Assembly (NCBI GenBank): GCA_017398585.1
Contig: JAFQFS010000174.1
Span: forward strand, 1 to 42,608
Direction: 5' to 3'
Length of the DNA stretch: 42,608 bases
DNA from: Clostridia bacterium
Lineage (GTDB): Bacteria; Bacillota; Clostridia; Oscillospirales; CAG-272
Shown here piece by piece: positions 6,004 to 39,210 of the stretch. Positions within the stretch are counted from its first letter, which is position 1, and every line of letters begins with the position of its first letter. A model generated the notes under the pieces. It had not been told where the DNA came from, searched no databases, and worked only from the letters and a program-made list of their open reading frames with translations. The translations under genes were made by a program, and so were the position numbers.

Positions 6004-6020
6004 TATCAAATAGAGTTTCT

Positions 6021-6128
6021 CGGGGAGGACCTTTTTAAGGAAAAGGTCCTCCCCGAACCCCTCTCCAAAACCTTTTTGGACCGGAAAAGAAACAACGTCC
6101 GTGCAGATTTTTCGTCTGCACGGACGTT
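6021..6128. terminator. Palindromic element copy 3 with terminator between convergent genes
   Basis: The first hairpin (6021-6055) pairs CGGGGAGGACC with GGTCCTCCCCG. The second (6094-6128) pairs AACGTCCGTGCAGA with TCTGCACGGACGTT, a perfect 14-bp stem with a 7-base T-rich loop; CTGTTTT follows on the plus strand and GTTTCTTTTC on the minus strand. It can serve infB and the convergent regulator. The GTGCAGATTTT core of the palindromic family forms this stem, so this is a compact form of the element. Confidence 0.85.
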
Positions 6129-7818: not shown

Positions 7819-7837
7819 CCCCATTTCACTTTTCCCT

Positions 7838-7897
7838 GTCTGAAAGTTTTTGAAAAGGGGTTTGGGGAAAAACTTTTTTCAAAAAGTTTTTCCCCAA
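7838..7897. repeat. Palindromic element, right half (copy 4)
   Basis: GAAAGTTTTTGAAAAGGGG leads into a hairpin (7862-7897) pairing TTGGGGAAAAAC with GTTTTTCCCCAA. It ends 32 bases before the GH31 start and could also terminate luxS transcripts. Confidence 0.85.
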
Positions 7898-7929
7898 GAA
7901 ACATCCCACTATAAAATGGAGGTTTCCAT

Positions 7930-12686: not shown

Positions 12687-12780
12687 TTGGGGAAGGAACT
12701 TTTTAAGAAAAGTTCCTTCCCCAAACCCCATCTTCAAAAACTATTAAACAAATGGTTTGACAAAGTTTGTGCAGACTGTT
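12687..12780. repeat. Palindromic element, left half (copy 6)
   Basis: The hairpin 12687-12724 pairs TTGGGGAAGGAAC with GTTCCTTCCCCAA. It is followed by ACCCCATCTTCAAAAAC and by the core motif TTGACAAAGTTTGTGCAGA. The right half is missing; the PfkB gene starts 24 bases later. Confidence 0.85.
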
Positions 12781-13834: not shown

Positions 13835-13994
13835 CCGGGGAAACCCCATCCCAAAAACTTTTAACTGGATAAATCAACAAAGTTTGTGCAGGATTTTTGT
13901 TGGATTTGCACCATGCTTTGTTCATTCATTTGTTTGAAAGTTTTTGAAGATGGGGTCCGGGGAAGAAACTTTTCTCAAAAAGTTTCTTCCCCGG
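13835..13994. repeat. Composite palindromic element, copy 7 (left hairpin lost)
   Basis: The left end keeps CCGGGGAAACCCCATCCCAAAAACTTTTA but the hairpin arm between CCGGGG and ACCCC is deleted. The core has ACAAAGTTTGTGCAGG and the mirror TTTGCACCATGCTTTGT. The right hairpin 13957-13994 pairs CCGGGGAAGAAAC with GTTTCTTCCCCGG. It ends 25 bases before the HAD gene. Confidence 0.85.
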
Positions 13995-14019
13995 AAAAAT
14001 ATTATTCAAGGAGAAAACC

Positions 14020-15470: not shown

Positions 15471-15917
15471 TTATAAGGAAGAAAAAAGCACCTGACGGTG
15501 CTTTTTTCAATTTTAATGCCACTACGCGTGGCGGCGCACAAGAGGTCCTCGCGCGGGACCTCTTGTGAATCACCCGCGCCAGAGGAGGGGAAGTGTCCCC
15601 TCCTCTGGACTCTTCCCCTCGGACGTAGCGCTAACCGCGGGGGCTGAGGTTTTCGCCCGGCTTCTCGCCGAAAGTTGGGCTTTTCCCGCGGTTAGCCTAT
15701 ATCTGCGCAACCCTTGCACCGGTATGTGCGTGTCGAGTTTTGTCTGAATTGTTCAACTGCAAGAACAAGAGATGTCCAGAGGATACTTCCTCTGGTCGGG
15801 GTGATTCACAAGAGGGCCGCGACCGGCGGAGGTCACGTAGTGACCTCCACTTGTGCGCCGTGCCGCGCAGGCACATAAAATTTGAAAAACGCCTTCAGGC
15901 GTTTTTCTTCCTTATAA
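15471..15917. ncRNA. Large structured repeat, copy A (candidate non-coding RNA)
   Basis: This 447-bp intergenic element is bounded by a perfect 16-bp inverted repeat, TTATAAGGAAGAAAAA (15471-15486) and TTTTTCTTCCTTATAA (15902-15917). Inside, in order: GCCAC-TACGC-GTGGC (15518-15532); a 12-bp hairpin 15537-15548/15556-15567 whose loop GCGCG can pair with CGCGC at 15575-15579; a 13-bp hairpin 15579-15591/15596-15608; GCTAACCGCGGG (15630-15641) with CCCGCGGTTAGC (15685-15696); CCAGAGGA-TACT-TCCTCTGG near 15777; a branched stem beginning CACAAG; GTGCC-GCGCA-GGCAC (15860-15874); and the border hairpin 15884-15907. Copy B (38793-39198) keeps the architecture with compensatory changes. Short frames through it differ between copies and look non-coding. 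Family and transcribed strand are unknown; a MITE-like element is the main alternative. Confidence 0.75.
15482..15507 (+). terminator. Terminator of pduL / left border hairpin of structured repeat A
   Basis: AAAAAAGCACC (15482-15492) pairs with GGTGCTTTTTT (15497-15507) around TGAC, a strong intrinsic terminator. It is also the left border of the 447-bp repeat. Confidence 0.9.
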
Positions 15918-16029: not shown

Positions 16030-16243
16030 AACGAAGTTTTCAGAAAAAGCGTATCCGCGCTGCCCATGGGGTTACACTCTCAGGCGTACTGCAGTGTGTC
16101 TCACACCCTGCGTACAAAGACTGAAAATGGATGTGTCTCTGGAGAACGCCGAGTTTCCAATAAAAGGAAATACGTCGGCTGCCGAAGGTGCAAGGCTTCT
16201 CTCACCGGAAACCGAATCTCTCAGGCAAAAGGACAGAGTCTTT
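16030..16243 (+). promoter_or_regulatory. Glycine riboswitch (one canonical aptamer, degenerate upstream copy)
   Basis: The aptamer at 16116-16243 has a 7-bp P1, AAAGACT (16116-16122) with AGTCTTT (16237-16243), the conserved GCCGAAGGTGCAAGG segment (from 16181) and CTCTCAGGCAAAAGGACAG (from 16218), the hallmark of glycine riboswitches. Upstream, about 16030-16100, CTCTCAGGCGTACTGCAG resembles the 3' part of a second aptamer, but the GCCGAAGG part is not preserved, as in singlet riboswitches with a ghost aptamer. It precedes an AGCS symporter gene, a usual target. Whether glycine turns expression on or off cannot be read directly. Confidence 0.9.
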
Positions 16244-16302
16244 AACCCATACCGCTTCCTCTGCTGCGGCATATTGGGCTATCGCCTGCATACTTTTCTC
16301 CG

Positions 16303-16366: not shown

Positions 16367-17743
16367 ATGGATGCCCTTTTAAAAATCGTTCAAACCATCA
16401 ATATGTACCTGTCAGACTATATCCTGATCATTCTTCTGATCGGTATCGGTCTCGTCTACTCGGTTAAAACCCGCTTCGTGCAGGTCCGCTGCTTCGGCGA
16501 AGGCATGCGCAAAGTATTCGGTAATATTTCCCTCCGCGGCGGCTCCGCCAAGGGTGGTATGAGCTCCTTCCAGGCTCTCACCACCGCAATTGCAGCACAG
16601 GTCGGTACCGGTAATATCGTCGGTGCCTGCGGCGCGATCCTCGTCGGCGGTCCCGGCGCGATCTTCTGGATGTGGATCATCGCTTTCTTCGGCATGGCTA
16701 CCATCTACGCCGAAGCTGTTCTCGCTCAGAAGACCCGCAAGGTATCCGCTGACGGCACTGTGTCCGGCGGTCCCGTTTACTACATCATGCACGCGTTCCC
16801 GAACAAGTTCGGTAAGTTCCTCTCCACCTTCTTCGCTGTAGCAGCCGTTCTCGCTCTCGGCTTCATGGGTGCAATGGTTCAGTCCAACTCCATGGCAGAA
16901 GCCTGCAACACCGCGTTCGGCGTTCCTACCTGGGTCATCGGTATCCTCGTAGCGGCAATCTCCGCGTTCATCTTCATCGGCGGCGTTAACCGTATCGCTT
17001 CCTTCACCGAAAAGGTCGTGCCCCTCATGGCATGTCTCTACCTCCTCGGCGGTCTGATCCTCATCGTCTGCCGCATCCAGTATCTCCCCGCAGCGTTCGG
17101 CATGATCTTCAAGTACGCGTTCGTTCCGCAGGCAATCATCGGCGGCGGCATCGGCTACGCACTCAAGACCGCGATCAGCCAGGGTGCAAAGCGCGGTCTC
17201 TTCTCCAACGAAGCAGGTATGGGTTCCACCCCGCATGCACATGCACTTGCTAACGTCGAAACTCCCCACGACCAGGGTGTTGTTGCCATGATCGGCGTCT
17301 TCATCGACACCTTCATCGTCCTCACCATGACCGCTCTCACCGTTATCGTTACTCTCTACGCCGGTGACGGCGTTCTCGCCAATATGGCAACGACCGGTAT
17401 TCCGGAAGGCGTTTCCAAGACCAATATGTCCCAGCTCGCCTTCTCCAGCATCTTCGGAAACGGTCTCGGCAACGGCTTCGTGGCAGTCTGCCTGTTCTTC
17501 TTCGCCTTCTCGACCGTTATCGGCTGGAACCTCTTCGGCCGTGTAAACATCAACTACCTCTTCGGCAAGAAGTCCAACCTCGTTTACTCCATCATCGCTC
17601 TCGTCTTCATCTTCCTCGGCTCCGTCCTCTCCAATGACCTCGTCTGGGAACTCACCGACATGTTCAACCAGCTCATGGTCATCCCCAACGCCATCGCCAT
17701 GTTCGCCCTGGTCAAGATGGTCTCCGGGAAGAGAGAAAAATAA
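16367..17743 (+). CDS. Alanine/glycine:cation symporter (AGCS family)
   Basis: AGCS proteins import alanine or glycine with Na+ or H+. The 458-residue protein has about ten to eleven membrane segments and the family signatures: GIGLVYSVKTRFVQVR at the start, SFQALTTAIAAQVGTGNIVG near residues 66-85, and KRGLFSNEAGMGSTPHAHA near 285-303. The ATG at 16367 has GGAGGA six bases upstream and lies after the riboswitch terminator; in-frame upstream codons belong to the riboswitch. Control by a glycine riboswitch points to glycine as a substrate, or alanine as well. It is a single-gene unit ended by two hairpins. Confidence 0.95.
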   Translation: MDALLKIVQTINMYLSDYILIILLIGIGLVYSVKTRFVQVRCFGEGMRKVFGNISLRGGSAKGGMSSFQALTTAIAAQVGTGNIVGACGAILVGGPGAIFWMWIIAFFGMATIYAEAVLAQKTRKVSADGTVSGGPVYYIMHAFPNKFGKFLSTFFAVAAVLALGFMGAMVQSNSMAEACNTAFGVPTWVIGILVAAISAFIFIGGVNRIASFTEKVVPLMACLYLLGGLILIVCRIQYLPAAFGMIFKYAFVPQAIIGGGIGYALKTAISQGAKRGLFSNEAGMGSTPHAHALANVETPHDQGVVAMIGVFIDTFIVLTMTALTVIVTLYAGDGVLANMATTGIPEGVSKTNMSQLAFSSIFGNGLGNGFVAVCLFFFAFSTVIGWNLFGRVNINYLFGKKSNLVYSIIALVFIFLGSVLSNDLVWELTDMFNQLMVIPNAIAMFALVKMVSGKREK

Positions 17744-17753
17744 TTGAATTTTA

Positions 17754-17789
17754 TTGGGGAGAAACTTTTCGGGAAAAGTTTCTCCCCAA
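17754..17789. repeat. Palindromic element, left half (copy 8)
   Basis: TTGGGGAGAAAC pairs with GTTTCTCCCCAA around a CTTTTCGGGAAAAG-like apex, followed by ACCCCTTTTCAAAAGCTTTCC. It follows the symporter stop by about 10 bases. Confidence 0.85.
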
Positions 17790-17878
17790 ACCCCTTTTCA
17801 AAAGCTTTCCATCTGGGTATTGGGATAGGTGGGTGCAGCTTTTTTACCTCAGCGGAATATATTCGTTTATCTCTCACG

Positions 17879-17909
17879 TTCGTACGGTGCAAACCGTACG
17901 AATTTTTTT
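17879..17909 (+). terminator. Intrinsic terminator before the padR gene
   Basis: TTCGTACGGT (17879-17888) pairs with ACCGTACGAA (17893-17902) around GCAA, followed by seven T. It should stop transcripts from the symporter unit. Confidence 0.9.
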
Positions 17910-17920
17910 GTTTTAACCCC

Positions 17921-17990
17921 TTGACAAATATATCGAAGTGCGATATAATATATACATCGAACCTCGATGCACAGAACTACAATACATCGA
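17921..17990 (+). promoter_or_regulatory. padR promoter with palindromic operators
   Basis: TTGACA (17921-17926) and TATAAT (17944-17949) are 17 bases apart. An inverted repeat TATATCG-N5-CGATATA (17929-17947) fills the spacer and overlaps the -10 box; a second, CATCGA-ACC-TCGATG (17955-17969), covers the start-site region; a half site CATCGAACC follows at 17985. The layout fits autorepression by the PadR protein encoded next. Confidence 0.8.
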
Positions 17991-18011
17991 ACCAAAATAT
18001 ACGGAGTACCT

Positions 18012-18335
18012 ATGGAAGACCGACTCAAACGAATCTATGTGCCGATGACGGAAACGGGATTCTACATCCTGTACTGCCTGCAGGATGAGATGCACGGTTA
18101 CAATATTGGAAAAAAAGTCAGCGAAATGACCGGCGGCGAAATCACGATCAGCCCCGGTACCATGTACGGAACCCTGTCCAAGATGGAAAAGGATGGACTG
18201 ATCGCTTTCGTCCGCGAAGAAGAAAAACGCCGTCTCTACCGCATCACGGAGCTTGGACGCGAGATCCTCACCATCGAACAGAAACGAATCGAACGACTTT
18301 ACAAGAACAGCATAGGAGAAACATATCATGGCTGA
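18012..18335 (+). CDS. PadR-family transcriptional regulator
   Basis: The 107-residue protein is a compact winged-helix PadR repressor: FYILYCLQDEMHGYNIGKKV near the start, then ISPGTMYGTLSKMEKDGLIA as the recognition region and RRLYRITELG as wing, with a short C-terminal helix. It lacks the longer dimerisation domain of PadR subfamily 2. ACGGAG lies five bases upstream of the ATG at 18012. It overlaps the DUF2812 gene by eight bases, a common PadR-partner arrangement. Inverted repeats across its promoter suggest autoregulation. The inducer is unknown. Confidence 0.93.
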   Translation: MEDRLKRIYVPMTETGFYILYCLQDEMHGYNIGKKVSEMTGGEITISPGTMYGTLSKMEKDGLIAFVREEEKRRLYRITELGREILTIEQKRIERLYKNSIGETYHG

Positions 18336-18903
18336 CACACGACGCGAATTTCATTATTTCCTGCTTCCCGACTACGAAAAAGAGGAAGAATTCCTCCGCG
18401 AAATGCACAACGACGGCTGGAAATTCACCCACGTCACCCTGCCGGGCATCTATCATTTTGAAGCCTGCGAACCGGAAGACGTCGTCTACCGCATCGACTT
18501 CAACCCGCAGACGGCGGACAAAAAGCGCGAATACATCCGGATGTTCGAGGACTACGGCTGGGACTATCTGCAGGATCTGAACGAATTCAGCTACTTCCGC
18601 AAGGCGGCATCCGACGCGGAAACGGAAGCGGATACCGAAATTTTCAGCGACAACGCCTCCAAGGTAGACATGATGCGCCGCATTTTCACGAAGCGCATGA
18701 TCCCCCTTCTTGTGGTTTTCCTCTGCTGTGTCCTGCCGAACACCGTCAATATCTTCCGGCTCGGCATCACGCACTTCTCCGCCTTCGAAGGCATCCTCAT
18801 CGGGCTGGTCTACGCCATGTTCGGACTTTATATCGCCATCATCACGCATTGCTTCATCGGATTCCGCCGCCTTTCGAAAAAATATTCCCAGTCCGAAGAA
18901 TAA
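18328..18903 (+). CDS. DUF2812 membrane protein
   Basis: The first 110 residues match the DUF2812 pattern: a FHYFLLPDYEKEEEFLREMHNDGWKF start, then GIYHFEACEPEDVVYRIDF and YGWDYLQDLNEFSYFRK. After a charged linker come two hydrophobic segments (about 123-145 and 153-180), so the soluble domain is probably cytoplasmic and membrane-anchored. DUF2812 genes commonly follow padR genes in Clostridia; the biochemical role is not known. Start overlap with padR implies translational coupling; AGGAGA lies about eight bases upstream. A hairpin terminator follows 34 bases after the stop. Confidence 0.85.
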   Translation: MADTRREFHYFLLPDYEKEEEFLREMHNDGWKFTHVTLPGIYHFEACEPEDVVYRIDFNPQTADKKREYIRMFEDYGWDYLQDLNEFSYFRKAASDAETEADTEIFSDNASKVDMMRRIFTKRMIPLLVVFLCCVLPNTVNIFRLGITHFSAFEGILIGLVYAMFGLYIAIITHCFIGFRRLSKKYSQSEE

Positions 18904-18937
18904 ATAATTTCCGCCGTTCTCCGCACAATAAGAACAC

Positions 18938-18973
18938 AAAACGCCGTCGTATACGCATACCGTACGGCGTTTT
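18938..18973 (+). terminator. Terminator after the padR-DUF2812 operon
   Basis: AAAACGCCGT (18938-18947) pairs with ACGGCGTTTT (18964-18973) around a 16-base loop, followed by CCTTTTG. The T-run forms the 3' arm end. Confidence 0.7.
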
Positions 18974-19004
18974 CCTTTTGAATCCAACAGAACGGAGAAA
19001 AAAT

Positions 19005-19376
19005 ATGCCCATTCTTCTCCTCCCAGAGGACGCGGAATATCTCGCCCGGTCGATGACACGGGAGTGCAGCGAACACGACATCTCCTATGCCGCCCGTGTA
19101 GGGATCGCCTCCGTCGTTCTCAACCGCATGGAGGACGACCGCTACCCGGACACTGCCGCCGCCGTTATCGCCTCCTGGGACGCCTTTCTGCCCGCGGAGG
19201 ACTATCCGATCCCCGACTATGAACGCGAATACCGCCTGTGCATGGACGCCTGCCGGAGCGCCGGAGACGGCGCTGACCCGACGGGCGGTGCCCTCTACTT
19301 CGAATTCCTCGAAAAAGACGTTGTCAACGACTCCCCCTACTACACCGTCATCATCGACAACACCGCGTTTTGGTAA
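19005..19376 (+). CDS. SleB/CwlJ-like cell wall hydrolase domain protein
   Basis: The 123-residue protein resembles the Hydrolase_2 (SleB/CwlJ) domain: LARSMTRECSEHDISYAARVGIASVVLNRM matches the family's catalytic-Glu helix and VLNR motif (E20 as likely catalytic residue), followed by YPDTAAAVI and, near the end, GALYFEF. These enzymes cleave peptidoglycan, in spore formers often cortex during germination. It has no signal peptide or wall-binding domain and is shorter than most members, so export is unclear; some CwlJ proteins also lack one. GGAG lies seven bases upstream. It is convergent with the SLH protein gene, sharing a terminator. Confidence 0.8.
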   Translation: MPILLLPEDAEYLARSMTRECSEHDISYAARVGIASVVLNRMEDDRYPDTAAAVIASWDAFLPAEDYPIPDYEREYRLCMDACRSAGDGADPTGGALYFEFLEKDVVNDSPYYTVIIDNTAFW

Positions 19377-19409
19377 AAAAATCCCCGAAGAAAATCTTCG
19401 GGGATTTTT
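19377..19409. terminator. Bidirectional terminator between convergent genes
   Basis: AAAAATCCCCGAAGA (19377-19391) pairs with TCTTCGGGGATTTTT (19395-19409) around AAA, with A and T runs on either side suited to both directions. Confidence 0.9.
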
Positions 19410-19424
19410 ATTGTCCTGTAAGGA

Positions 19425-22400
19425 TTAACCGTTCTTATCCAGAACCTTGGTGCAGAAACCGTGGAGGAGCATCGCGAGTTCGCAGCGGAGAGCGTTTTCG
19501 GTAGGAGTAAGCTTACCGCCGGTGGTGATGAGGATGCTGTTCTGGCTTGCAAACTTTACACCTTCCACTGCCCAGTCAGCGATTTCGTCCGCATCGCGGA
19601 TGCCGGAAAGGCTGGCGTTGGTGAGAGGAGTGTTATAGTTTTCAATAAACATCGCATAGCGGTACATGAAGAGGTACATCTGCTGATGAGTAATCGGATC
19701 GTTCGGGCTGAACTTGCCGTTGCCGGTACCGTTGGTGATGCCGTTCTGAACTGCCCATTCAATGTAGGGTGCTGCCCAGGAAATCTGCTGGTCGCTTCTG
19801 GAAACGTCCGTGAAGCTGGTGCCGGAGAACTTGGCAACATCAACGCCTGCAAGACGACCGAGAACCGTTACGAACATCGCACGGGTCATGGTGGTGGTAG
19901 GCTCGAACTTGGTCGCGGTCATACCGTTAAAGAGACCTTCGCTGCATACAAACGCAACTGCGTTGTAGTACTGTGCGCTCTTGGAGATGTCCGTGAAGGG
20001 GTTCGTCCAGTTCGCAGCAGAGGAAGTGGACGAGGATGCCGTACCCTTCTTGAAGGTCACCGTCAGCTTCACATCCGCAGTGATGTTTTCCTTCTTGTAA
20101 GTACCAACGCCCTTGGAGCTTACCGTGTAGCCGGAAGCCGCAGCGCTGATGGTCTTCGTACCGTCCTTGACGGAGGAAATTTCATAACCTTCATTCGGAG
20201 TAATGGTAAAGGTCACGGTACCGCCGTGAGCAACCGTATCCTTGTTGGGGTTCACGGTAACCTTACCGTTGGTCACGGGAACTACTTCAACCTTGTAAAT
20301 ACCGGGGATCTTGTCTTCTTCGAAGGTCAGTGCAGAATCAGTGTAAGCAAGAGAAAGCGAAGTGTTCGACAGGTCGGTATAAGTAAGAGTAGCCTTCTTG
20401 TCCTTGTTGGTGTTGTTGATCTTCACAACGAGGTCGTCGCAGTCACCGTAATCGATCCATTCGGACTTAAGCTTGAGCGTATAGCCGTTGAGGTCGATAT
20501 ATACTGTCGTATCGTAATCGGGAGCAAAGATGAAGGTAGTAAGGTTCTGATCCTTGCCGAGCTTCATGCGGACAACGAAAGAGTCTTCATAATCGTCGTC
20601 AATATCGAAGATGTCCAGAGCATCATCATGATCCTCAAGATCTTCGAGGGCTTCCTTGAGCGAATCGTAAACCTTGGTCTTGAGGAGTGCGGAAGAAGAA
20701 GTGGAATTGCCGTTCTTATAGATGGAAACGGTGCATTCGGCGTCGGAATCCATCGGGATTACACCTTCGGTGAACTTAAGATTGGAACCGTCGGTCACAA
20801 CGAGAGACGCATCAAGGTCGTCGTAAACCAGAGTTCCGTGATCGTCATCGTTGGTATTGGTGATAACGATCTCGATATCTTCGTTTTTGCTGTCGTACTC
20901 GATCCATTCGGAATCCAGCGTAAGTTCACAACCGTTCAGGTCGATCGTAATCTTGTGCTCGTGATCGGGAGCGAATTCAAAGCCTTCAATATCCTGATCT
21001 TCCCCGAGCTTGATCTTTACAGCAAAGTTTTTCTCATAGCTGCTGCCAACATTGTATTCGTCGATAATATCGTCCTCGTCTTCCAGACTTTCCAGAGCTT
21101 CTTCGAGGTCATCGAACACCTTGGAATCGCCGGTCACAGAGGAGCTGGTAGCACTGCGGTAAATCGTTACGGTGCAGGCTACACCGGAAATCGGCATATC
21201 GAAGCTGAGGCTGTAGGTTTTTCCGCCGTATTCAAGATACAGCTTGAGGGAAACTTTACCGTTCTTGATATCGTCTTCTTCTACAGTATCAGCGTCAGAA
21301 CCATCCTTACCGGAAACATTCACATACATCTTCGCGCCCGCACCGAGCCAGTCTTCGAGATCGTCTTCATCCTTGATTTCCTTGTACTTGGTGGTGCCGG
21401 AGGAATTCTTGTACTTGAAGCTTACGGATTCGAAGAGGTCTTCCCAGTCGAGTTCGTCATCAATCTTGACCTTTGCGTCTTCGTCAAGAACCGCCTTGTT
21501 GCCAGTAGTATTTGCAAAACCGGTAACATCCACAAAGGTGCCGACCGTAACTTCAAAGGTTGCGGAACCGGAACCGAATTCATCGGTATAGGTTACGGTA
21601 ACATTCTGGGTTCCTTCCCTGGTGAACTTCTCAACATTTGCGCTGATCCTGGAGGAGTTCTGAGAATATGTTTTTGTCACATACTGGTTATTGGTACTGT
21701 CGGAATATTTCACCGCCAGAACAAGACCGGTCAGATCCAGTTTTTCGTTGGTGGTGTATACCGTCTTGGTAGGCGCGGTATATACCTTAACGTCGGTAAG
21801 GGTCTTGGTCACCTTTTCAGCAACCGAGATCGCGATGGACGCGGTCTTGCCGGAATAGGATACCGTCAGAGCCTTGTCCGACGCGGTAAGCGCACCACTC
21901 GGAGAGAAGGTAATCTCGCTGTAATCCGCTGCGGAAATGGTGTACTTGTCGCCGCCGCTGCGCGTTACCTTGATGGAAACGTCCGATCTCTGAATGGTAT
22001 CCCCTACGGTATACTTGGAACCGTTCGCGGGCGAAACGATCTCGATGCCGGTAACGCTGTCCGCCGTAACCTTGATGCCGGTTACCTCACAGGTTTTTCC
22101 TGCATAAGTGATCGTTACGGAAGTATCTTCCTGCGCAAGAATACCGGAGGGCTTTACGGTGTATCCGGTAACCGTTTCGGAAGTACCATCGTTATAATGG
22201 GCGACCACAGATGCGGAACCCATGCTGAACGATTCGCCTTCCGTATATTCCTTCTTGGGTGTTCCGCTCACGGAAATGGATTCCACTTCCCGCTTTACGA
22301 CCCGAACCGTACAGGAATCATTCTTATCCTTGGAATATGCGTAAATTGTTACGGACTTGCCGGCAGTATGACCGGTAACCACACCGCTGGAGGAAACACT

Positions 22401-24989: not shown

Positions 24990-25214
24990 TTGGGGAGGGA
25001 CTTTTTGAAAAAAGTCCCTCCCCAAACCCCTCTTCAAAAACTTTTATACTGGATATGGCAGACGAAGTGCAGTGCGGATCCGGAATACCAAACCGGCTGT
25101 ACAGCGGACAGAATTATAATTACTGCAAATCTGCACTTACTCTGTCATCCCCAATAGTATAAAGTTTTTTGAAAGGGGTTTGGGGAAAACTTTTTTTCAA
25201 AAAAGTTTTCCCCA
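24990..25214. repeat. Composite palindromic intergenic element, copy 10 (between ktrB and ktrA)
   Basis: Left hairpin 24990-25025 pairs TTGGGGAGGGAC with GTCCCTCCCCAA; right hairpin 25181-25214 pairs TGGGGAAAAC with GTTTTCCCCA. The flanks carry CCCCTCTTCAAAAACTTTT and AAAGTTTTTTGAAAGGGG. The core has GTGCAGTGCGG and the mirror CTGCAAATCTGCACTTACTCTGTCAT. It splits ktrB from ktrA, and on the minus strand its last hairpin ends 20 bases before the ktrA start. Confidence 0.9.
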
Positions 25215-28145: not shown

Positions 28146-30407
28146 TTATCGCTGTCCCCGCACCAGACCGTGCGCGGTCTTCAGATCCTCACGGCAGCGT
28201 TCGCGCATTTCCGCGGCACGTTCCGCCAGTGTCCGTCCGATCTCGACGCGGTTTCCCATGATCCGGCAGACGCAGCCGTACGTTTCGCCGCCGATATCCG
28301 CCGAATGTGCGAGATCCACCACAAACGGCTGACCGAGCGCCTTCATCATCGACGACACCTTCGGGTCGTATTCCAATCCGACCACCGGTACTTCCGCTGA
28401 CGACGCAAAGATGATCGAATGCAGGCGCATGCCGATCACGAACGCCGCTTTTGACAGCACGCCGATCAGTTCCGGTGCGTTCTCGGGCGTGTACAGCACC
28501 GCAGCACGTCCGCTGTTTTTCATCCGTTCGTTGTACTTCTCCGCAAAATAGCGGCAGATTTCGCCGTCCTGCACCCCCTGCATGGGAATCACGAACGGGA
28601 CAAGTCCGTATTCCTCCGTGATCTTCACGCAGGCGTCGACTACTTCATCCGCCACGTGCATGAGGGATGTATCCGTATTTTTCTGCACCGGAGGACGCAG
28701 GGACACAGCGAAAAAGCCGTCCTTTACCCCGATCCGGTCCATCGTCCGCGCGAGCCGGTGCTCATCGTACGGACGGATGAGGAACGCCGGGTCCGCCGTC
28801 ACGCGGATGTTCTCCCGCGTCACGCCGATACGGCGCAGCTCGTCCGCGGAATCCGCATCGCGCACGGAGACTTCCGCCGCGCGGTCGACCACCTTCGCGG
28901 TCAGCTTCCGGTTGGACTTATCGCGTACCGGTCCGATGCCGTTCGCGTAAACATACGATTTCACGCCGAACGCCTCGGCGATCCCGAGTACACCCGCATA
29001 ATATTTCAAACTTCTGCGGCTCGTGGAATCCTGCAGCAGGCTTCCGCCGCCGGAAACAAGCAGTTTCGCACCGCGTATGGTTCCGACCGCCGCCGGACTG
29101 AACCGCGATACACACCGCAGACCGGTCCGTTTGGCATCCGCTTTCGGGTGACGGGTAAGCGCAGCAATCTTTACATCCGGAATTTCCTCAGCCAGTGTCG
29201 CGGCGATCACATCGAGCAGGCTCTCGTCGCCCATGTTGCCGAATCCGTAGTAACCGCTGACGACGACGTCCGCTTTCCCCTTGAAGGGTACGGGGGCCGC
29301 CAGTGCGGCGCGGTACATTTCCTCATAATCCGCCGCCATCCGGTGCGCGGTGTAGTGTTCCATGACAAACGCACGGTTGAACGCTCCCATAGCCGCCCGT
29401 TCTTCCGGCGAACGGTTCAGGCAGTCTGCGATCCAGCCGTACAGGGTCTCGCCGTCCGCGAGGTCGAACCCGCGGCAACAGAAATTCGTATCAACGGCAG
29501 GGGTGACCTTCGTTTCGTCGAAAATACCGAGCGCGCCCTGACCACCAGCGACAATAACGGGCTTCGCCGCCGACATCGCCTCAAGAACGGAGCGTGATAC
29601 ACCGACGAACACATCCGCCGCAGATGCATATTCATTGATGTTCGACACCGCGCCCGTCATAGTGACCAGATTGCATCCGGTGTCTTTGTTCACTTTGTCC
29701 GCCATATCGCAGAGGGTCTCGAATTCCGTACCGCCGCCAACGACGAGGATATCGGTATCGGGAAAATTTTCAGCGATTTTCGGTGCAATTTCGATGAGCC
29801 GGTATGCGGGATCGGCGCGGTCGGCATCAAGACGGCTGATGTAAACGATCCGTCTGCGCTCTTTTTTCAGTCCGTGGGAAGCAAGCAGGTCATCAAAAGG
29901 TACGTCGGGCGAGAACTTCGCCGTGTCAATCCCGTTGATGGTGAGGTAGATCTTCTCGCGCGGGTAACCGTACTCGTCGACGAGGTAGTCGGCAATGTCG
30001 TCGGAGACCGCCATGACGCGCTCGCCCCAGCGGGAGATCTTCCGCCAGAGAGCATTCATTGAGAAGTTGAGATGCGCGGTCGTGACAAAGCGGAACTTCA
30101 TCCGGTCGTGCAGCAGCCCGCAGATGAATGCAGGGATTCTTGCGTGTGCGTGGACGAGGTCAAACCCGCCGTCGCGGATGAGCCGCTTCAGCCCGTTGTA
30201 GGACGTCATAACCGATGCGGGATTCTTCGTATGAAGGGGAAGCGTGACGTGCTTCACCCCAAGCGATATCAGCTCATCGGCGTAGACGCCGCCGAACGAA
30301 GCGAGCGTAACATCGTGCCCGATCCGGTTCAGCTCCCGGCACAGTTCCAGAATATGTGTCTCCGCCCCACCGATGTTCATTGCCATGGTGACCATTAGGA
30401 TTTTCAT
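28146..30407 (-). CDS. csaB: Fused GT4 glycosyltransferase and CsaB-type polysaccharide pyruvyl transferase
   Basis: The 753-residue protein joins two enzymes. Residues 1-370 are a GT4 (GT-B) glycosyltransferase: MNIGGAETHILELCRELNRIGH at the start and a C-terminal ASAADVFVGVSRSVLEAMSAAKPVI nucleotide-sugar site. Residues 377-753 are a CsaB-type pyruvyl transferase: SGYYGFGNMGDESLL, SGGGSLLQD, YANGIGPV and the MRLHSIIFA motif. CsaB adds ketal pyruvate from PEP to secondary cell-wall polymer, the ligand of SLH domains, and this window has two SLH proteins. The ATG follows a palindromic hairpin by 14 bases without a clear Shine-Dalgarno. A fused form is not the usual one, but both halves look intact. 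Confidence 0.9.
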   Translation of the reverse strand: MKILMVTMAMNIGGAETHILELCRELNRIGHDVTLASFGGVYADELISLGVKHVTLPLHTKNPASVMTSYNGLKRLIRDGGFDLVHAHARIPAFICGLLHDRMKFRFVTTAHLNFSMNALWRKISRWGERVMAVSDDIADYLVDEYGYPREKIYLTINGIDTAKFSPDVPFDDLLASHGLKKERRRIVYISRLDADRADPAYRLIEIAPKIAENFPDTDILVVGGGTEFETLCDMADKVNKDTGCNLVTMTGAVSNINEYASAADVFVGVSRSVLEAMSAAKPVIVAGGQGALGIFDETKVTPAVDTNFCCRGFDLADGETLYGWIADCLNRSPEERAAMGAFNRAFVMEHYTAHRMAADYEEMYRAALAAPVPFKGKADVVVSGYYGFGNMGDESLLDVIAATLAEEIPDVKIAALTRHPKADAKRTGLRCVSRFSPAAVGTIRGAKLLVSGGGSLLQDSTSRRSLKYYAGVLGIAEAFGVKSYVYANGIGPVRDKSNRKLTAKVVDRAAEVSVRDADSADELRRIGVTRENIRVTADPAFLIRPYDEHRLARTMDRIGVKDGFFAVSLRPPVQKNTDTSLMHVADEVVDACVKITEEYGLVPFVIPMQGVQDGEICRYFAEKYNERMKNSGRAAVLYTPENAPELIGVLSKAAFVIGMRLHSIIFASSAEVPVVGLEYDPKVSSMMKALGQPFVVDLAHSADIGGETYGCVCRIMGNRVEIGRTLAERAAEMRERCREDLKTAHGLVRGQR

Positions 30408-30421
30408 AAAATAGTGTTTTT

Positions 30422-30475
30422 CGGGGGAAACTTTTTTAAAAAAGTTTCCCCCGAACCCCTTTCAAAAAACTTTAT
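30422..30475. repeat. Palindromic element, left half (copy 11)
   Basis: The hairpin 30422-30453 pairs CGGGGGAAAC with GTTTCCCCCG around TTTTTTAAAAAA, followed by AACCCCTTTCAAAAAACTTT. It lies between ygiQ and the GT4-CsaB gene. Confidence 0.85.
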
Positions 30476-30504
30476 GCTGAAAAAACAAATGGGGATAGTT
30501 CAAA

Positions 30505-32547
30505 TTATTTCTTTTTGTTATTCGTTTTGCGCGTATCCGGACGTTTATAATCCGATTTCGCGTGATTTTTTCCGTCAGTTCTGCGGCTGTCCGCACGTTT
30601 TTCCTGCGGTTTCTGCGCGGATCTCAGCTTGTTCTGCTGTCCGGAACGGGAATGCCCCTCGTTTTTGTCTTTCTGCGGATGTGGATGTCCGTAACCGTTG
30701 TTCTTCTTCGGCATATCGTCCGCACGTCCGTCGCGCGGCATGCCGAGCAGTTCGCGCAGATCTGCCTTGCCCGCTTCCGTGCAATACTTCATCGCCTCAA
30801 AGATCATCGGACGGTTCTGCGGCTTTCTCCACTGCAGCAGCGCGCGCTGAAGCTGCTTTTCACGGTAATCCGTCGCCGTATACACCGGTTTTCCGGTGAA
30901 CGGATCGAGTCCCGTGTAATACATAACCGTCGACGCAGTGCCGGGAGTAGGGTAGTAGTCCTGCACCTGTTCCGGCGCGAGACCGATCTTTTTCGTATAC
31001 AGCGCGAGTCTCGCAGCATCATCCATGGTACTGCCGGGATGGCTCGACATCAGGTAGGGAACAAGGTACTGTTCCTTGCCGCATTCCTCCGACAGCCGCA
31101 TATATTTTTCGCGGAATTTATCGTACACCTCTACGGACGGCTTGCCCATGTGGGAAAGGACGTTCGGCGCACAGTGTTCCGGTGCAACCTTGAGCTGACC
31201 ACTGACATGGTCACGCACAAGTTTTTTAAAAAACGCGTCGGACCTGTCCGCCATCATGTAGTCGAAGCGGATGCCCGAACGGATGAATACCTTCTTGATG
31301 CCCGGCACGGCTTCAATGCGCTTCAGCAGTTCGATGTATTCGCTGTGATCCGCCTTGAGATTCGGGCACGGCTTCGGGAACAGACAGCGCTTGTTCGAGC
31401 AGACACCGTGTTCGAGCTGTTTGTCACAAGCCGGGCCGCGGAAATTCGCCGTCGGTCCGCCGACGTCGTGGATGTAACCCTTGAATCCGTCAAGTTTCGT
31501 GATGAGTTCGGCTTCCTTCACGCAGGATTCAATGCTTCTCGAGCGCACAGCACGTCCCTGATGGAATGCAAGGGCGCAGAAATTGCATCCGCCGAAGCAG
31601 CCGCGGTTGTGCGTAATGGAAAAACGTACCTCCGAGATTGCCGGAACGCCGCCCATTTCCTCGTACATCGGGTGATAGGTCCGCACGAAGGGAAGAGCAT
31701 AGACCTTATCCAGCTCCTCCTGTTCGAGCGGCGGCTGCGGCGGGTTGACGACGAGCATACGGTCGTCGTAATATTCTACGATCGCCTTGCCGTTCACGGC
31801 GTCGTTGTTCATATACTGCACGCGGAACGCGTCGGCATACAGTTTTTTGTCGATTTTCAGGTCGTCGTAATCGTACCCGTCCGCCTCACCCTGTTCAGGC
31901 TTCACGCCGAGACGTCCGGCGCAGGGGAAATGGATCTCATCGCCGCGCTTGCCGAGATACGCCGTCCCGCGCACGTCGCGGATCTTCTTCACGGGCACGC
32001 CCTTGTCGAGCAGTTCCGCGAGACGCAGAACCGACCGTTCCCCCATGCCATACATCAGGATATCGGCACGGCTGTCGATCAGAACCGACCGGCGCACCTT
32101 ATCTGTCCAGTAATCGTAGTGTGCGAACCGGCGCAGGGAAGCCTCCAGACCGCCGATGAGGATCGGGATATCGCCGTATGCCTCGCGGATCTTGTTGCAG
32201 TACACAATCACGGCGCGATCGGGCCGGAGTCCCGCTTTGCATCCGGGACTGTAGTAGTCCTCACTGCGGCGTTTTTTCGCGGCGGTATAGTGCGCGACCA
32301 TGGAGTCAATGTTCCCGGACGACACCAGGAACCCAAGCCGCGGCTTGCCGAACTTTTTAAAGTCGTCCTGCGTCCGCCAGTCGGGCTGACAGAGCATAGC
32401 CACGGAAAATCCGGCATCCTCGAGCACACGGCTGATGATCGCCGCCCCGAACGACGGATGATCCACATACGCATCACCGTTCACATAAACAAAATCCACC
32501 TGACCCTGAACTTCCTCAGGAAAAACGGGGAGAAAATGATTTGACAT
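30505..32547 (-). CDS. YgiQ-family radical SAM protein
   Basis: The 680-residue protein matches the YgiQ (UPF0313) family: an N-terminal B12-binding-like domain (FLVSSGNIDSMVAHYTAAKK near 73-92), the radical SAM cluster motif in CFGGCNFC (about 316-323, CxxxCxxC), the GGLEASLRRFAHYDYW segment, and a conserved C-terminal YPTPGTASTVMYYTG and CTEAGKADL block. The last 90 residues are basic and low-complexity (H, K, N, R), probably disordered. The family's reaction is unknown. The ATG at 32547 lies nine bases after a palindromic hairpin, with only a weak GGGAAA purine run partly inside it. Confidence 0.9.
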   Translation of the reverse strand: MSNHFLPVFPEEVQGQVDFVYVNGDAYVDHPSFGAAIISRVLEDAGFSVAMLCQPDWRTQDDFKKFGKPRLGFLVSSGNIDSMVAHYTAAKKRRSEDYYSPGCKAGLRPDRAVIVYCNKIREAYGDIPILIGGLEASLRRFAHYDYWTDKVRRSVLIDSRADILMYGMGERSVLRLAELLDKGVPVKKIRDVRGTAYLGKRGDEIHFPCAGRLGVKPEQGEADGYDYDDLKIDKKLYADAFRVQYMNNDAVNGKAIVEYYDDRMLVVNPPQPPLEQEELDKVYALPFVRTYHPMYEEMGGVPAISEVRFSITHNRGCFGGCNFCALAFHQGRAVRSRSIESCVKEAELITKLDGFKGYIHDVGGPTANFRGPACDKQLEHGVCSNKRCLFPKPCPNLKADHSEYIELLKRIEAVPGIKKVFIRSGIRFDYMMADRSDAFFKKLVRDHVSGQLKVAPEHCAPNVLSHMGKPSVEVYDKFREKYMRLSEECGKEQYLVPYLMSSHPGSTMDDAARLALYTKKIGLAPEQVQDYYPTPGTASTVMYYTGLDPFTGKPVYTATDYREKQLQRALLQWRKPQNRPMIFEAMKYCTEAGKADLRELLGMPRDGRADDMPKKNNGYGHPHPQKDKNEGHSRSGQQNKLRSAQKPQEKRADSRRTDGKNHAKSDYKRPDTRKTNNKKK

Positions 32548-32556
32548 AATGTTTCC

Positions 32557-32739
32557 CGGGGAAAACTTTTTTGAAAAAAAGTTTTCCCCGAACCCCTTTC
32601 AAAAAACTTCAATCTATTATAATAACAAAGTACAGCTTAAATTTTACGCAGAATAAGTCTGCACTTTCTCTGTTTCTGTTCCAGTCCAAAAGGTTTTGAA
32701 GAGGGTTTGGGGGAAACTTTTGAAAAAAGTTTCCCCCAA
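32557..32739. repeat. Composite palindromic intergenic element, copy 12
   Basis: Left hairpin 32557-32590 pairs CGGGGAAAAC with GTTTTCCCCG; right hairpin 32707-32739 pairs TTGGGGGAAAC with GTTTCCCCCAA. Between are ACCCCTTTCAAAAAACTTC, a core with TAACAAAGTACAG and AGTCTGCACTTTCTCTGTT, and CCAAAAGGTTTTGAAGAGGG. It separates ygiQ from the CotH gene. Confidence 0.9.
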
Positions 32740-32750
32740 CGTTCTCCCCC

Positions 32751-38698: not shown

Positions 38699-38792
38699 GA
38701 GATTTCCATGAGGTGTAATATAAGTGAAATATTAAGCAGAGTTTAATATTGGTAATGTTACAGAGATATTGTAACACAAAGAATATAAGGAA

Positions 38793-39198
38793 GAAAAACT
38801 CCCTGCGGGCGTTTTTCAAAATTGATGTCCCTACGCGGGACGGGCGCACAAGAGACCCGGTCGCGGGCCTCTTGTGAATCTCCGCGACCAGAGGAGGGGA
38901 AGAATCCCCTCCTCTGGACTCTTCCCCTCGGACGTAGCGCTAACCGCGGGGGGCTGAAGTTTTCGTCCGGCTTCACGCCGTAAGCATAAATTTATTTTGC
39001 GGTTAGCCTATATCTGCGCAACCCTTACACCGTATGAACGTGTCGGGTTATTTCTTGATTATTCAGCTGCAAGAACGAGAGGTGTCCAGAGGACACTTCC
39101 TCTGGTCGTGGAGAGTCAAGAGAGGACCGCGACCGGTCCTCTCTTGCGCCGCCCCGCGCAGGGGCATTAATTTTGAAAAACGCCTTCAGGCGTTTTTC
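38793..39198. ncRNA. Large structured repeat, copy B (candidate non-coding RNA)
   Basis: This 406-bp element matches copy A (15471-15917) throughout. Border hairpins are 38793-38817 and 39175-39198 (GAAAAACGCC-TTCA-GGCGTTTTTC, identical in A). GTCCC-TACGC-GGGAC (38827-38841) keeps the loop of copy A but changes both arms, as does GCCCC-GCGCA-GGGGC (39151-39165). The hairpin 38847-38876 has loop GGTCGC able to pair with GCGACC at 38884-38889. The 13-bp hairpin 38888-38917 and the segment CCTATATCTGCGCAACCC are nearly unchanged. It lies between the S-layer promoter and the amidase promoter. No reading frame is shared with copy A over its length. Confidence 0.75.
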
Positions 39199-39210
39199 TT
39201 CCTTCTTCTA

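What the first reader, a model, noticed from the sequence alone, without database searches (positions are those of the whole stretch)
15471..15917. A 450-bp structured element present twice, with compensatory stem changes
Copies at 15471-15917 and 38793-39198 share the same order of hairpins. At two hairpins the loop is identical and both arms change together: GCCAC-TACGC-GTGGC against GTCCC-TACGC-GGGAC, and GTGCC-GCGCA-GGCAC against GCCCC-GCGCA-GGGGC. Such paired changes point to selection on RNA (or single-strand DNA) structure. Terminator-like hairpins bound both ends, so the element may be an independent transcript, or a mobile unit like a MITE. I cannot match it to a known class; large ornate bacterial RNAs and HEARO/omega-type RNAs are the families to exclude.
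Basis: partly seen in the sequence, partly recalled or inferred. Interest (0 to 1): 0.78.

Follow-up and report, generated by a model that had tools for sequence, protein, structure and literature searches.

The report
Mobile repeats with pseudoknotted single-strand arms
The two look-alike stretches belong to a large family of mobile, intensely folded DNA repeats in gut Clostridia, whose two halves each appear to keep a pseudoknotted fold on one strand only, which points to a function as RNA or single-stranded DNA rather than as ordinary double-stranded DNA.

Summary
The two window copies belong to a family of about 40 copies of this type in the window's own genome (capped list), with 123 arm matches to a covariance model. 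A full copy is a head-to-head pair of a short and a long unit; single units also occur. Each arm carries hairpins and an H-type pseudoknot that change by compensation across related genomes: 92.3% of cells paired, 13 of 18 pairs with two-sided changes, covariation 0.465 against 0.146 shuffled; the pseudoknot keeps one register (73% Watson-Crick, other registers 19-49%). In the main hairpin, read outward from the centre in both arms, G.T but no A.C mismatches occur (34:0 in 88 distinct forms), so selection acts on a single strand. Insertion differences between species show mobility. No Rfam family matches. No internal sigma-70 promoter is seen, and reverse transcriptase, TnpB, IS110 and Y1 genes were not found in this 73.6% complete genome. 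Best reading: non-autonomous mobile repeats built of a pseudoknotted single-strand unit, probably RNA; the mobilising enzyme is unknown.

The parts
15471..15917 (.). Element copy 1: head-to-head pair of a short unit (left, read on - strand) and a long unit (right, read on + strand), between the pduL-like gene and the glycine riboswitch/Na:alanine symporter
   Evidence: flanking genes
15475..15486 (+). left terminal inverted repeat AAGGAAGAAAAA
15481..15508 (.). left bidirectional terminator-like hairpin
15518..15532 (-). outer hairpin H4, left arm (GCCAC-TACGC-GTGGC on +)
   Evidence: stem types
15513..15586 (-). left arm match to the pseudoknot-arm model R1
15537..15567 (-). S2 hairpin of left arm; its loop (15551-15557) pairs with S1 strand 15573-15579 to make the pseudoknot
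15579..15608 (-). H6 hairpin, left arm
15684..15882 (+). long unit, right arm, as aligned in A3 (5' domain, variable hairpin, H6, pseudoknot S1/S2, H4)
15776..15795 (+). H6 hairpin, right arm
15794..15855 (+). pseudoknot of right arm: S1 GGTCG 15794-15798 with CGACC 15820-15824; S2 CACAAG 15807-15812 with CTTGTG 15850-15855; a 21-base hairpin is inserted at 15828-15848
15860..15874 (+). outer hairpin H4, right arm (GTGCC-GCGCA-GGCAC)
15884..15907 (.). right bidirectional terminator-like hairpin
15902..15913 (-). right terminal inverted repeat
38784..39204 (.). Element copy 2, between an SLH-domain gene and an amidase gene; absent at the orthologous place in G004
38787..38798 (+). left terminal inverted repeat, copy 2
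38822..38895 (-). left arm match to model R1, copy 2
38827..38841 (-). outer hairpin H4, left arm (GTCCC-TACGC-GGGAC on +)
38995..39192 (+). long unit, right arm, copy 2
39098..39170 (+). right arm match to model R1, copy 2
39151..39165 (+). outer hairpin H4, right arm (GCCCC-GCGCA-GGGGC)
39175..39198 (+). right terminator-like hairpin, copy 2
39193..39204 (-). right terminal inverted repeat, copy 2

Best explanation
The element is a non-autonomous mobile repeat. Its building block is a unit of roughly 150-230 nt, read outward from the element's centre to its end, that folds as a single strand: a 5' domain, hairpins, an H-type pseudoknot, an outer hairpin and, in most copies of this species, an intrinsic-terminator-like hairpin. 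The full 450-base element is two such units head to head. SHOWN: many copies, insertion differences between species, the fold and its compensatory changes, the fixed pseudoknot register, and the strand polarity of the main hairpin. INFERRED: that the working molecule is RNA rather than ssDNA; that an enzyme encoded elsewhere recognises the folded unit and moves it; and that the end hairpins reduce damage to neighbouring genes by terminating transcription, which would suit insertion just behind stop codons.
For: Copy number: about 40 copies of this type in G000; 123 arms to model R1 (at most 150 candidates scored per genome). Mobility: copy 2 has no counterpart in G004; where G004 has an element, the flanking alignments lie 5 bases apart in the window (26601/26607) against 522 in G004, and G022 lacks it too. 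Context: in 31 copies flanking-gene directions are mixed (8 convergent, 8 and 7 codirectional, 6 divergent, 2 with one side unknown). Structure: 54 chosen arms of 172, 92.3% of 967 cells paired, 13 of 18 pairs with two-sided change, covariation 0.465 vs 0.146 sd 0.010 (0 of 500), slid structures 0.043-0.092. Pseudoknot: own-arm pairing 5.75 vs 4.47 sd 0.094 for swapped arms, none of 200 shuffles; register i+j=18 73% Watson-Crick in 89 distinct arms against 19-49% in 14 other registers. Polarity: 34 G.T and 0 A.C in 88 distinct S2 hairpins from both arms; hairpins in a variable stretch of the long unit 29 G.T and 1 A.C in 28 distinct forms.
Against: No mobilising enzyme is identified. No target-site duplication could be defined. 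No sigma-70-like promoter lies inside, which weakens the RNA reading, and terminator hairpins are missing at some ends. Polarity is not uniform in every tally: all 118 hairpins of the S2 scan give 42 G.T, 8 A.C, 56 other; right arms before filtering 32:14, or 17:7 over distinct hairpins; the H6 region 12:8 or 20:9, both mixed with misregistered strings; the outer hairpin H4 goes the other way, 0:6 or 1:5, the latter at outermost positions or in misregistered forms; the pseudoknot register 62:13. The sequences are related, so independent events are fewer than these counts, and I chose the anchors and the hallmark filter after seeing the pattern. 28 of 117 arms (Agathobaculum-like and GTGGAC loops) were set aside before the 73% figure; with them it is 60% against 23-39%. 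Own genome is 73.6% complete.
Confidence: 0.6

Rival explanations
1. The unit acts as folded single-stranded DNA: an enzyme recognises hairpins on one strand of the unit, as IS200/IS605-type or attC-type systems do, and RNA is not involved.
For: Strand polarity fits any single strand. No internal promoter. Terminators are not universal.
Against: No Y1 transposase in the own genome. A covarying 5-8 bp H-type pseudoknot is more usual for RNA (general knowledge). The two arms keep opposite strands, so a single-strand intermediate of the whole element does not fit unless the unit, not the element, is what moves.
Confidence: 0.22
2. One reading: one independent, functional noncoding RNA gene of about 450 nt present in many copies, not primarily mobile.
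For: Strong fold and compensation; terminators at the ends.
Against: Opposite polarity of the two arms; no internal promoter; presence or absence differs between close species; no fixed gene context; solo units exist.
Confidence: 0.06
3. Ordinary palindromic DNA repeat (MITE or REP/BIME-like) whose stems stay complementary through template switching or gene conversion, with no selection on single-strand structure.
For: Hairpins look exchanged as whole modules; arms are inverted repeats of each other; the outer hairpin H4 and the H6 region give no clear strand polarity.
Against: G.T without A.C in S2 on one strand per arm, and a pseudoknot in a fixed register between segments that are not simple palindromes, are not expected from copying one hairpin arm into the other.
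Confidence: 0.08
4. Bacterial retroposon: the unit's RNA is copied by a reverse transcriptase supplied in trans (SINE-like).
For: Single-strand selection plus mobility.
Against: RVT_1 found in only 3 of the 12 genus genomes with 36 or more arms (none in G000, G022, G012) but in 9 of the other 13.
Confidence: 0.04

Closest known systems
Mobile/repeat sequence candidate MRSC-65-2 (PMC11109978; passages read)
   Same: Covarying structure, dozens of copies per genome; the authors leave RNA or DNA form open and treat inconsistent orientation to genes as a sign of such repeats
   Different: A single long stem with UYCCGG repeats, spread over diverse phyla; here a pseudoknotted unit, head-to-head pairing, and a narrow host range in what was sampled
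MITEs (miniature inverted-repeat transposable elements)
   Same: Short, non-coding, multi-copy, terminal inverted repeats, intergenic, insertion differences between relatives
   Different: No parent transposon or target duplication found; single-strand pseudoknot kept in each arm
REP/BIME repeats with RAYT (Y1) transposases
   Same: Intergenic palindromes, paired inverted units (recalled)
   Different: Much longer, pseudoknotted; no Y1 domain in the own genome
HEARO/IscB and TnpB omega RNAs
   Same: Structured RNA carried by mobile DNA, with pseudoknots (recalled)
   Different: No Rfam match at gathering score in the element; TnpB C-terminal domain in 0 of 12 high-copy genomes
Large ornate RNAs (ROOL, GOLLD, OLE)
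   Same: Large folded non-coding sequence
   Different: No Rfam match; tens of copies per genome; paired inverted units

Membership tests
Any Rfam 15 family | score above the family's gathering cut-off | tested here: not met
   only a glycine riboswitch outside the element; 18 sub-threshold matches, lowest E 0.017 (a microRNA family, 23.3 bits against a cut-off of 90); on 8 relatives' loci: tRNA and 6S outside the elements only; 2 sub-threshold matches
HEARO / omega RNA systems | association with IscB or TnpB | tested here: not met
   PF07282 in 2 of 25 genus genomes at E<=0.001 (1 over cut-off), neither with 36 or more arms. IscB itself was not searched
IS110 bridge-RNA systems | IS110 transposase present | tested here: not met
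   PF02371 in 5 of 25 genomes; 1 of the 12 high-copy genomes; none in G000
REP/RAYT or IS200/IS605 | Y1 transposase in the genome | tested here: not met
   PF01797 0 matches in G000, which is 73.6% complete; relatives not searched
MITE | multiple short non-coding copies with terminal inverted repeats | tested here: met
MITE | target-site duplication | tested here: inconclusive
   flanks at the empty sites do not align closely enough
MITE | parent transposon with matching ends | tested here: inconclusive
   58 exact AAGGAAGAAAAA sites in G000 (14 for the reversed control pattern); 16 sites not explained by a listed copy were fetched, most with 2.3-3.2 kb, two with 1.2 kb or less. One pair of outward long units lies about 1.5 kb apart (G000:C43, L014:4309-5853) around a gene, but that gene is a single-copy metallo-beta-lactamase-fold gene also present in G004 and G022 at 92-95% identity, so a host gene. 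No transposase-bearing version was seen; variant ends were not searched genome-wide
Retroposon (SINE-like) | reverse transcriptase in genomes with many copies | tested here: not met
   3 of 12 high-copy genomes
Autonomous ncRNA gene | own promoter | tested here: not met
   no sigma-70-like promoter in copy 1 and none inside copy 2; in 23 copies the best scores average 4.61 rightward and 6.39 leftward against 4.74 for shuffled sequence, at most 8 matches of 12 and at no constant place. Other sigma factors not tested

The most novel reading that the evidence does not exclude
A new kind of bacterial mobile genetic element whose mobile unit is a pseudoknotted structured RNA of about 150-230 nt, spread in trans by an unknown ribonucleoprotein or host machinery without a reverse transcriptase, TnpB or IS110 enzyme, and usually fixed as head-to-head pairs in rumen and gut Clostridia.
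Probability: 0.2. Interest if true: 0.9.

Novelty: new variant of a known kind. Interest (0 to 1): 0.62.

Why it matters
Bacterial repeats of this size are usually filed as palindromic DNA or MITEs. Here sequence alone suggests that each half is selected as one strand, through a wobble-pair polarity test and a fixed-register pseudoknot. If the unit is RNA, this would be a mobile RNA-bearing element with more than a hundred arms per genome and no recognised mobilising enzyme. The polarity test is simple and could be applied to other repeat families to separate RNA or ssDNA selection from DNA palindromes.

Tried and rejected
Rfam at gathering and permissive thresholds: nothing credible. Viral contigs with two exact patterns, phage records and plasmid records: no match. 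Literature: five full-text searches; listings only were seen, and no listed title concerned this family; one paper, PMC11109978, was opened and passages read. This is not proof that nothing is in print. Internal promoter: none convincing. Autonomous parent element: none seen. Cross-arm pairing as the conserved fold: rejected, since left and right types mix between copies. RNAalifold on the long unit recovered H6 and S2 but also proposed a long-range stem that I do not rely on. The H6 and H4 polarity tallies mix real and misregistered stems; they are reported under evidence against.

Full report
Observation. The two copies at 15471-15917 and 38784-39204 read as described, including both paired stem exchanges. 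The 12-base end repeat AAGGAAGAAAAA occurs only at the four element ends in the window. The fold of copy 1 is extreme on either strand (z about -15.4). Neither copy matches Rfam at gathering level, and the sub-threshold list for copy 1 is chance-like.

Family and hosts. With a covariance model of the arm (R1, built from 54 chosen arms of 172) the own genome has 123 arm matches and 18 of 25 genus genomes have some (at most 150 candidates are scored per genome). In 391 genomes spread over the class 5 match, the own genome included; three of the other four belong to one further genus and one match is weak (E 9e-4) (stricter filters). A pattern scan of named genomes found 88 stretches, of which 80 are listed, in rumen and gut Clostridia MAGs and in Agathobaculum (A. 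butyriciproducens, A. desmolans and others). That the second genus is Agathobaculum is inference.

Anatomy. An alignment of 23 full copies and of unit sequences shows that a full element is a short unit on the left and a long unit on the right, head to head. Read outward, each unit runs: 5' domain beginning GCGGTTAGC, a variable hairpin stretch in the long unit, hairpin H6, pseudoknot S1/S2, outer hairpin H4, and in most copies here a terminator-like hairpin and the end repeat. Single units occur beside ordinary genes (L199, L201, L203-L206; two in G022, L050 and L051). On contig C43 two long units face outward about 1.5 kb apart around a metallo-beta-lactamase-fold gene (L014:4309-5853, L212); that gene is single-copy in G000 and 92-95% identical in G004 and G022, so I take it for a host gene. 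Some copies carry another outer module or extra hairpins inserted into loops.

Pseudoknot and compensation. The strand just before the conserved (R)GATTC pairs with the loop of the CACAAGAGG...CCTCTTGTG hairpin. In 103 distinct combinations own-arm pairing averages 5.75, against 4.47 (sd 0.094) when loops are swapped between arms, with none of 200 shuffles reaching it; 70 of 103 score 5 or more. At register i+j=18, 73% of 712 cells in 89 distinct arms are Watson-Crick, against 19-49% in the 14 other registers tried; with the 28 excluded Agathobaculum-like and GTGGAC-loop arms put back it is 60% against 23-39%. On 54 aligned arms S2 is paired in 99.8% of cells and S1 in 82.9%, with many pair types; covariation 0.465 against 0.146 shuffled and at most 0.092 when slid. 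The arms were chosen by me and are related, so shuffles are not probabilities.

Strand polarity. If only double-stranded DNA mattered, G.T and A.C mismatches in stems would be equally tolerated. Scoring both alike, 88 distinct S2 hairpins from both arms and several species, read outward, contain 34 G.T and 0 A.C, with 20 other mismatches. The 30 hairpins outside the hallmark filter, many of them visibly chance hits of the anchor, bring the totals to 42, 8 and 56. Left arms alone give 23:2 (8:2 over distinct hairpins); right arms before filtering 32:14 (17:7), including chance stems in the core. A variable stretch of the long unit gives 29:1 over 28 distinct forms, though the best stem is not the same one in every copy. 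Other tallies are mixed or contrary: the H6 region 12:8 and 20:9, with misregistered strings inside; the outer hairpin H4 0:6 and 1:5, the latter at outermost positions or in misregistered forms. I conclude that the outward strand of each arm is selected as a single strand, on the strength of S2 and the pseudoknot. A one-strand transcript of the whole element does not explain this.

Mobility. The window aligns with 53 kb of G004 contig C135 and with two G022 contigs. Copy 2 has no counterpart in G004, nor in the G022 stretches I read, which are rearranged there. G004 has an element between alignments that lie 5 bases apart in the window and 522 in G004, and G022 has none there. Behind the pduL-like gene both G000 and G004 carry an element, but with different cores, while G022 has only a terminator-like hairpin. 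In G004 the symporter gene lies inverted between two inverted copies, suggesting recombination between copies. Target duplications could not be defined. In 31 copies flanking genes have no preferred direction. Where a gene ends at the element it does so within 60 bases in 24 of 33 cases; where a gene starts there it lies 75 bases or more away in 24 of 27 (counted; home-made gene caller, and small overlaps are ignored; one copy overlaps a called gene by 23 bases).

What moves it. The own genome has no Y1 transposase, RVT_1, TnpB C-terminal domain or Transposase_20 match. Among the 12 genus genomes with 36 or more arms the last three occur in 3, 0 and 1. Genomes are incomplete, but the pattern argues against each as the general driver. 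Other transposase families were not searched. No sigma-70-like promoter is found inside. No phage, plasmid or viral-contig match was found for the sequences searched.

Verdict. The element is a non-autonomous mobile repeat built of a pseudoknotted unit selected as a single strand, more probably RNA than ssDNA. It works like a MITE in its spread, and has not been shown to be a member of any transposon-derived MITE family. The nearest published category seen is the mobile/repeat sequence candidates of PMC11109978 (passages read).

Noticed in passing
window 16129-16246 (+): Glycine riboswitch aptamer (62.4 bits) just ahead of a Na:alanine symporter gene, directly downstream of element copy 1.
   Followed up: no
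window about 43-101, 2000-2064, 6008-6077, 7831-7910, 12687-12766, 13927-14005, 17749-17817, 24990-25072, 25130-25214, 30400-30481, 32543-32615, 32676-32742: A second short repeat family of roughly 50-80 bases, GGGGAGAAACTTTT...AAAAGTTTCTCCCC-like at the one place where I read it (17749), cross-matching many places of G004 and G022.
   Followed up: partly
L191-L193 (G004:C135), joined positions 17341-20103: The symporter gene is inverted relative to the window and lies between two inverted element copies, as if the copies had recombined.
   Followed up: partly
L014:4309-5853 (G000:C43): A single-copy metallo-beta-lactamase-fold gene lies between two outward-facing long units.
   Followed up: partly
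L067:6922-7116 (+): A 6S RNA gene about 100 bases before an Agathobaculum element copy.
   Followed up: no
L009, L027, L030, L033, L035, L038, L199, L201, L204, L212: The small hairpin GAGACACTTCGTGTCTC (with variants) appears inserted in several loops and also next to some element ends.
   Followed up: no
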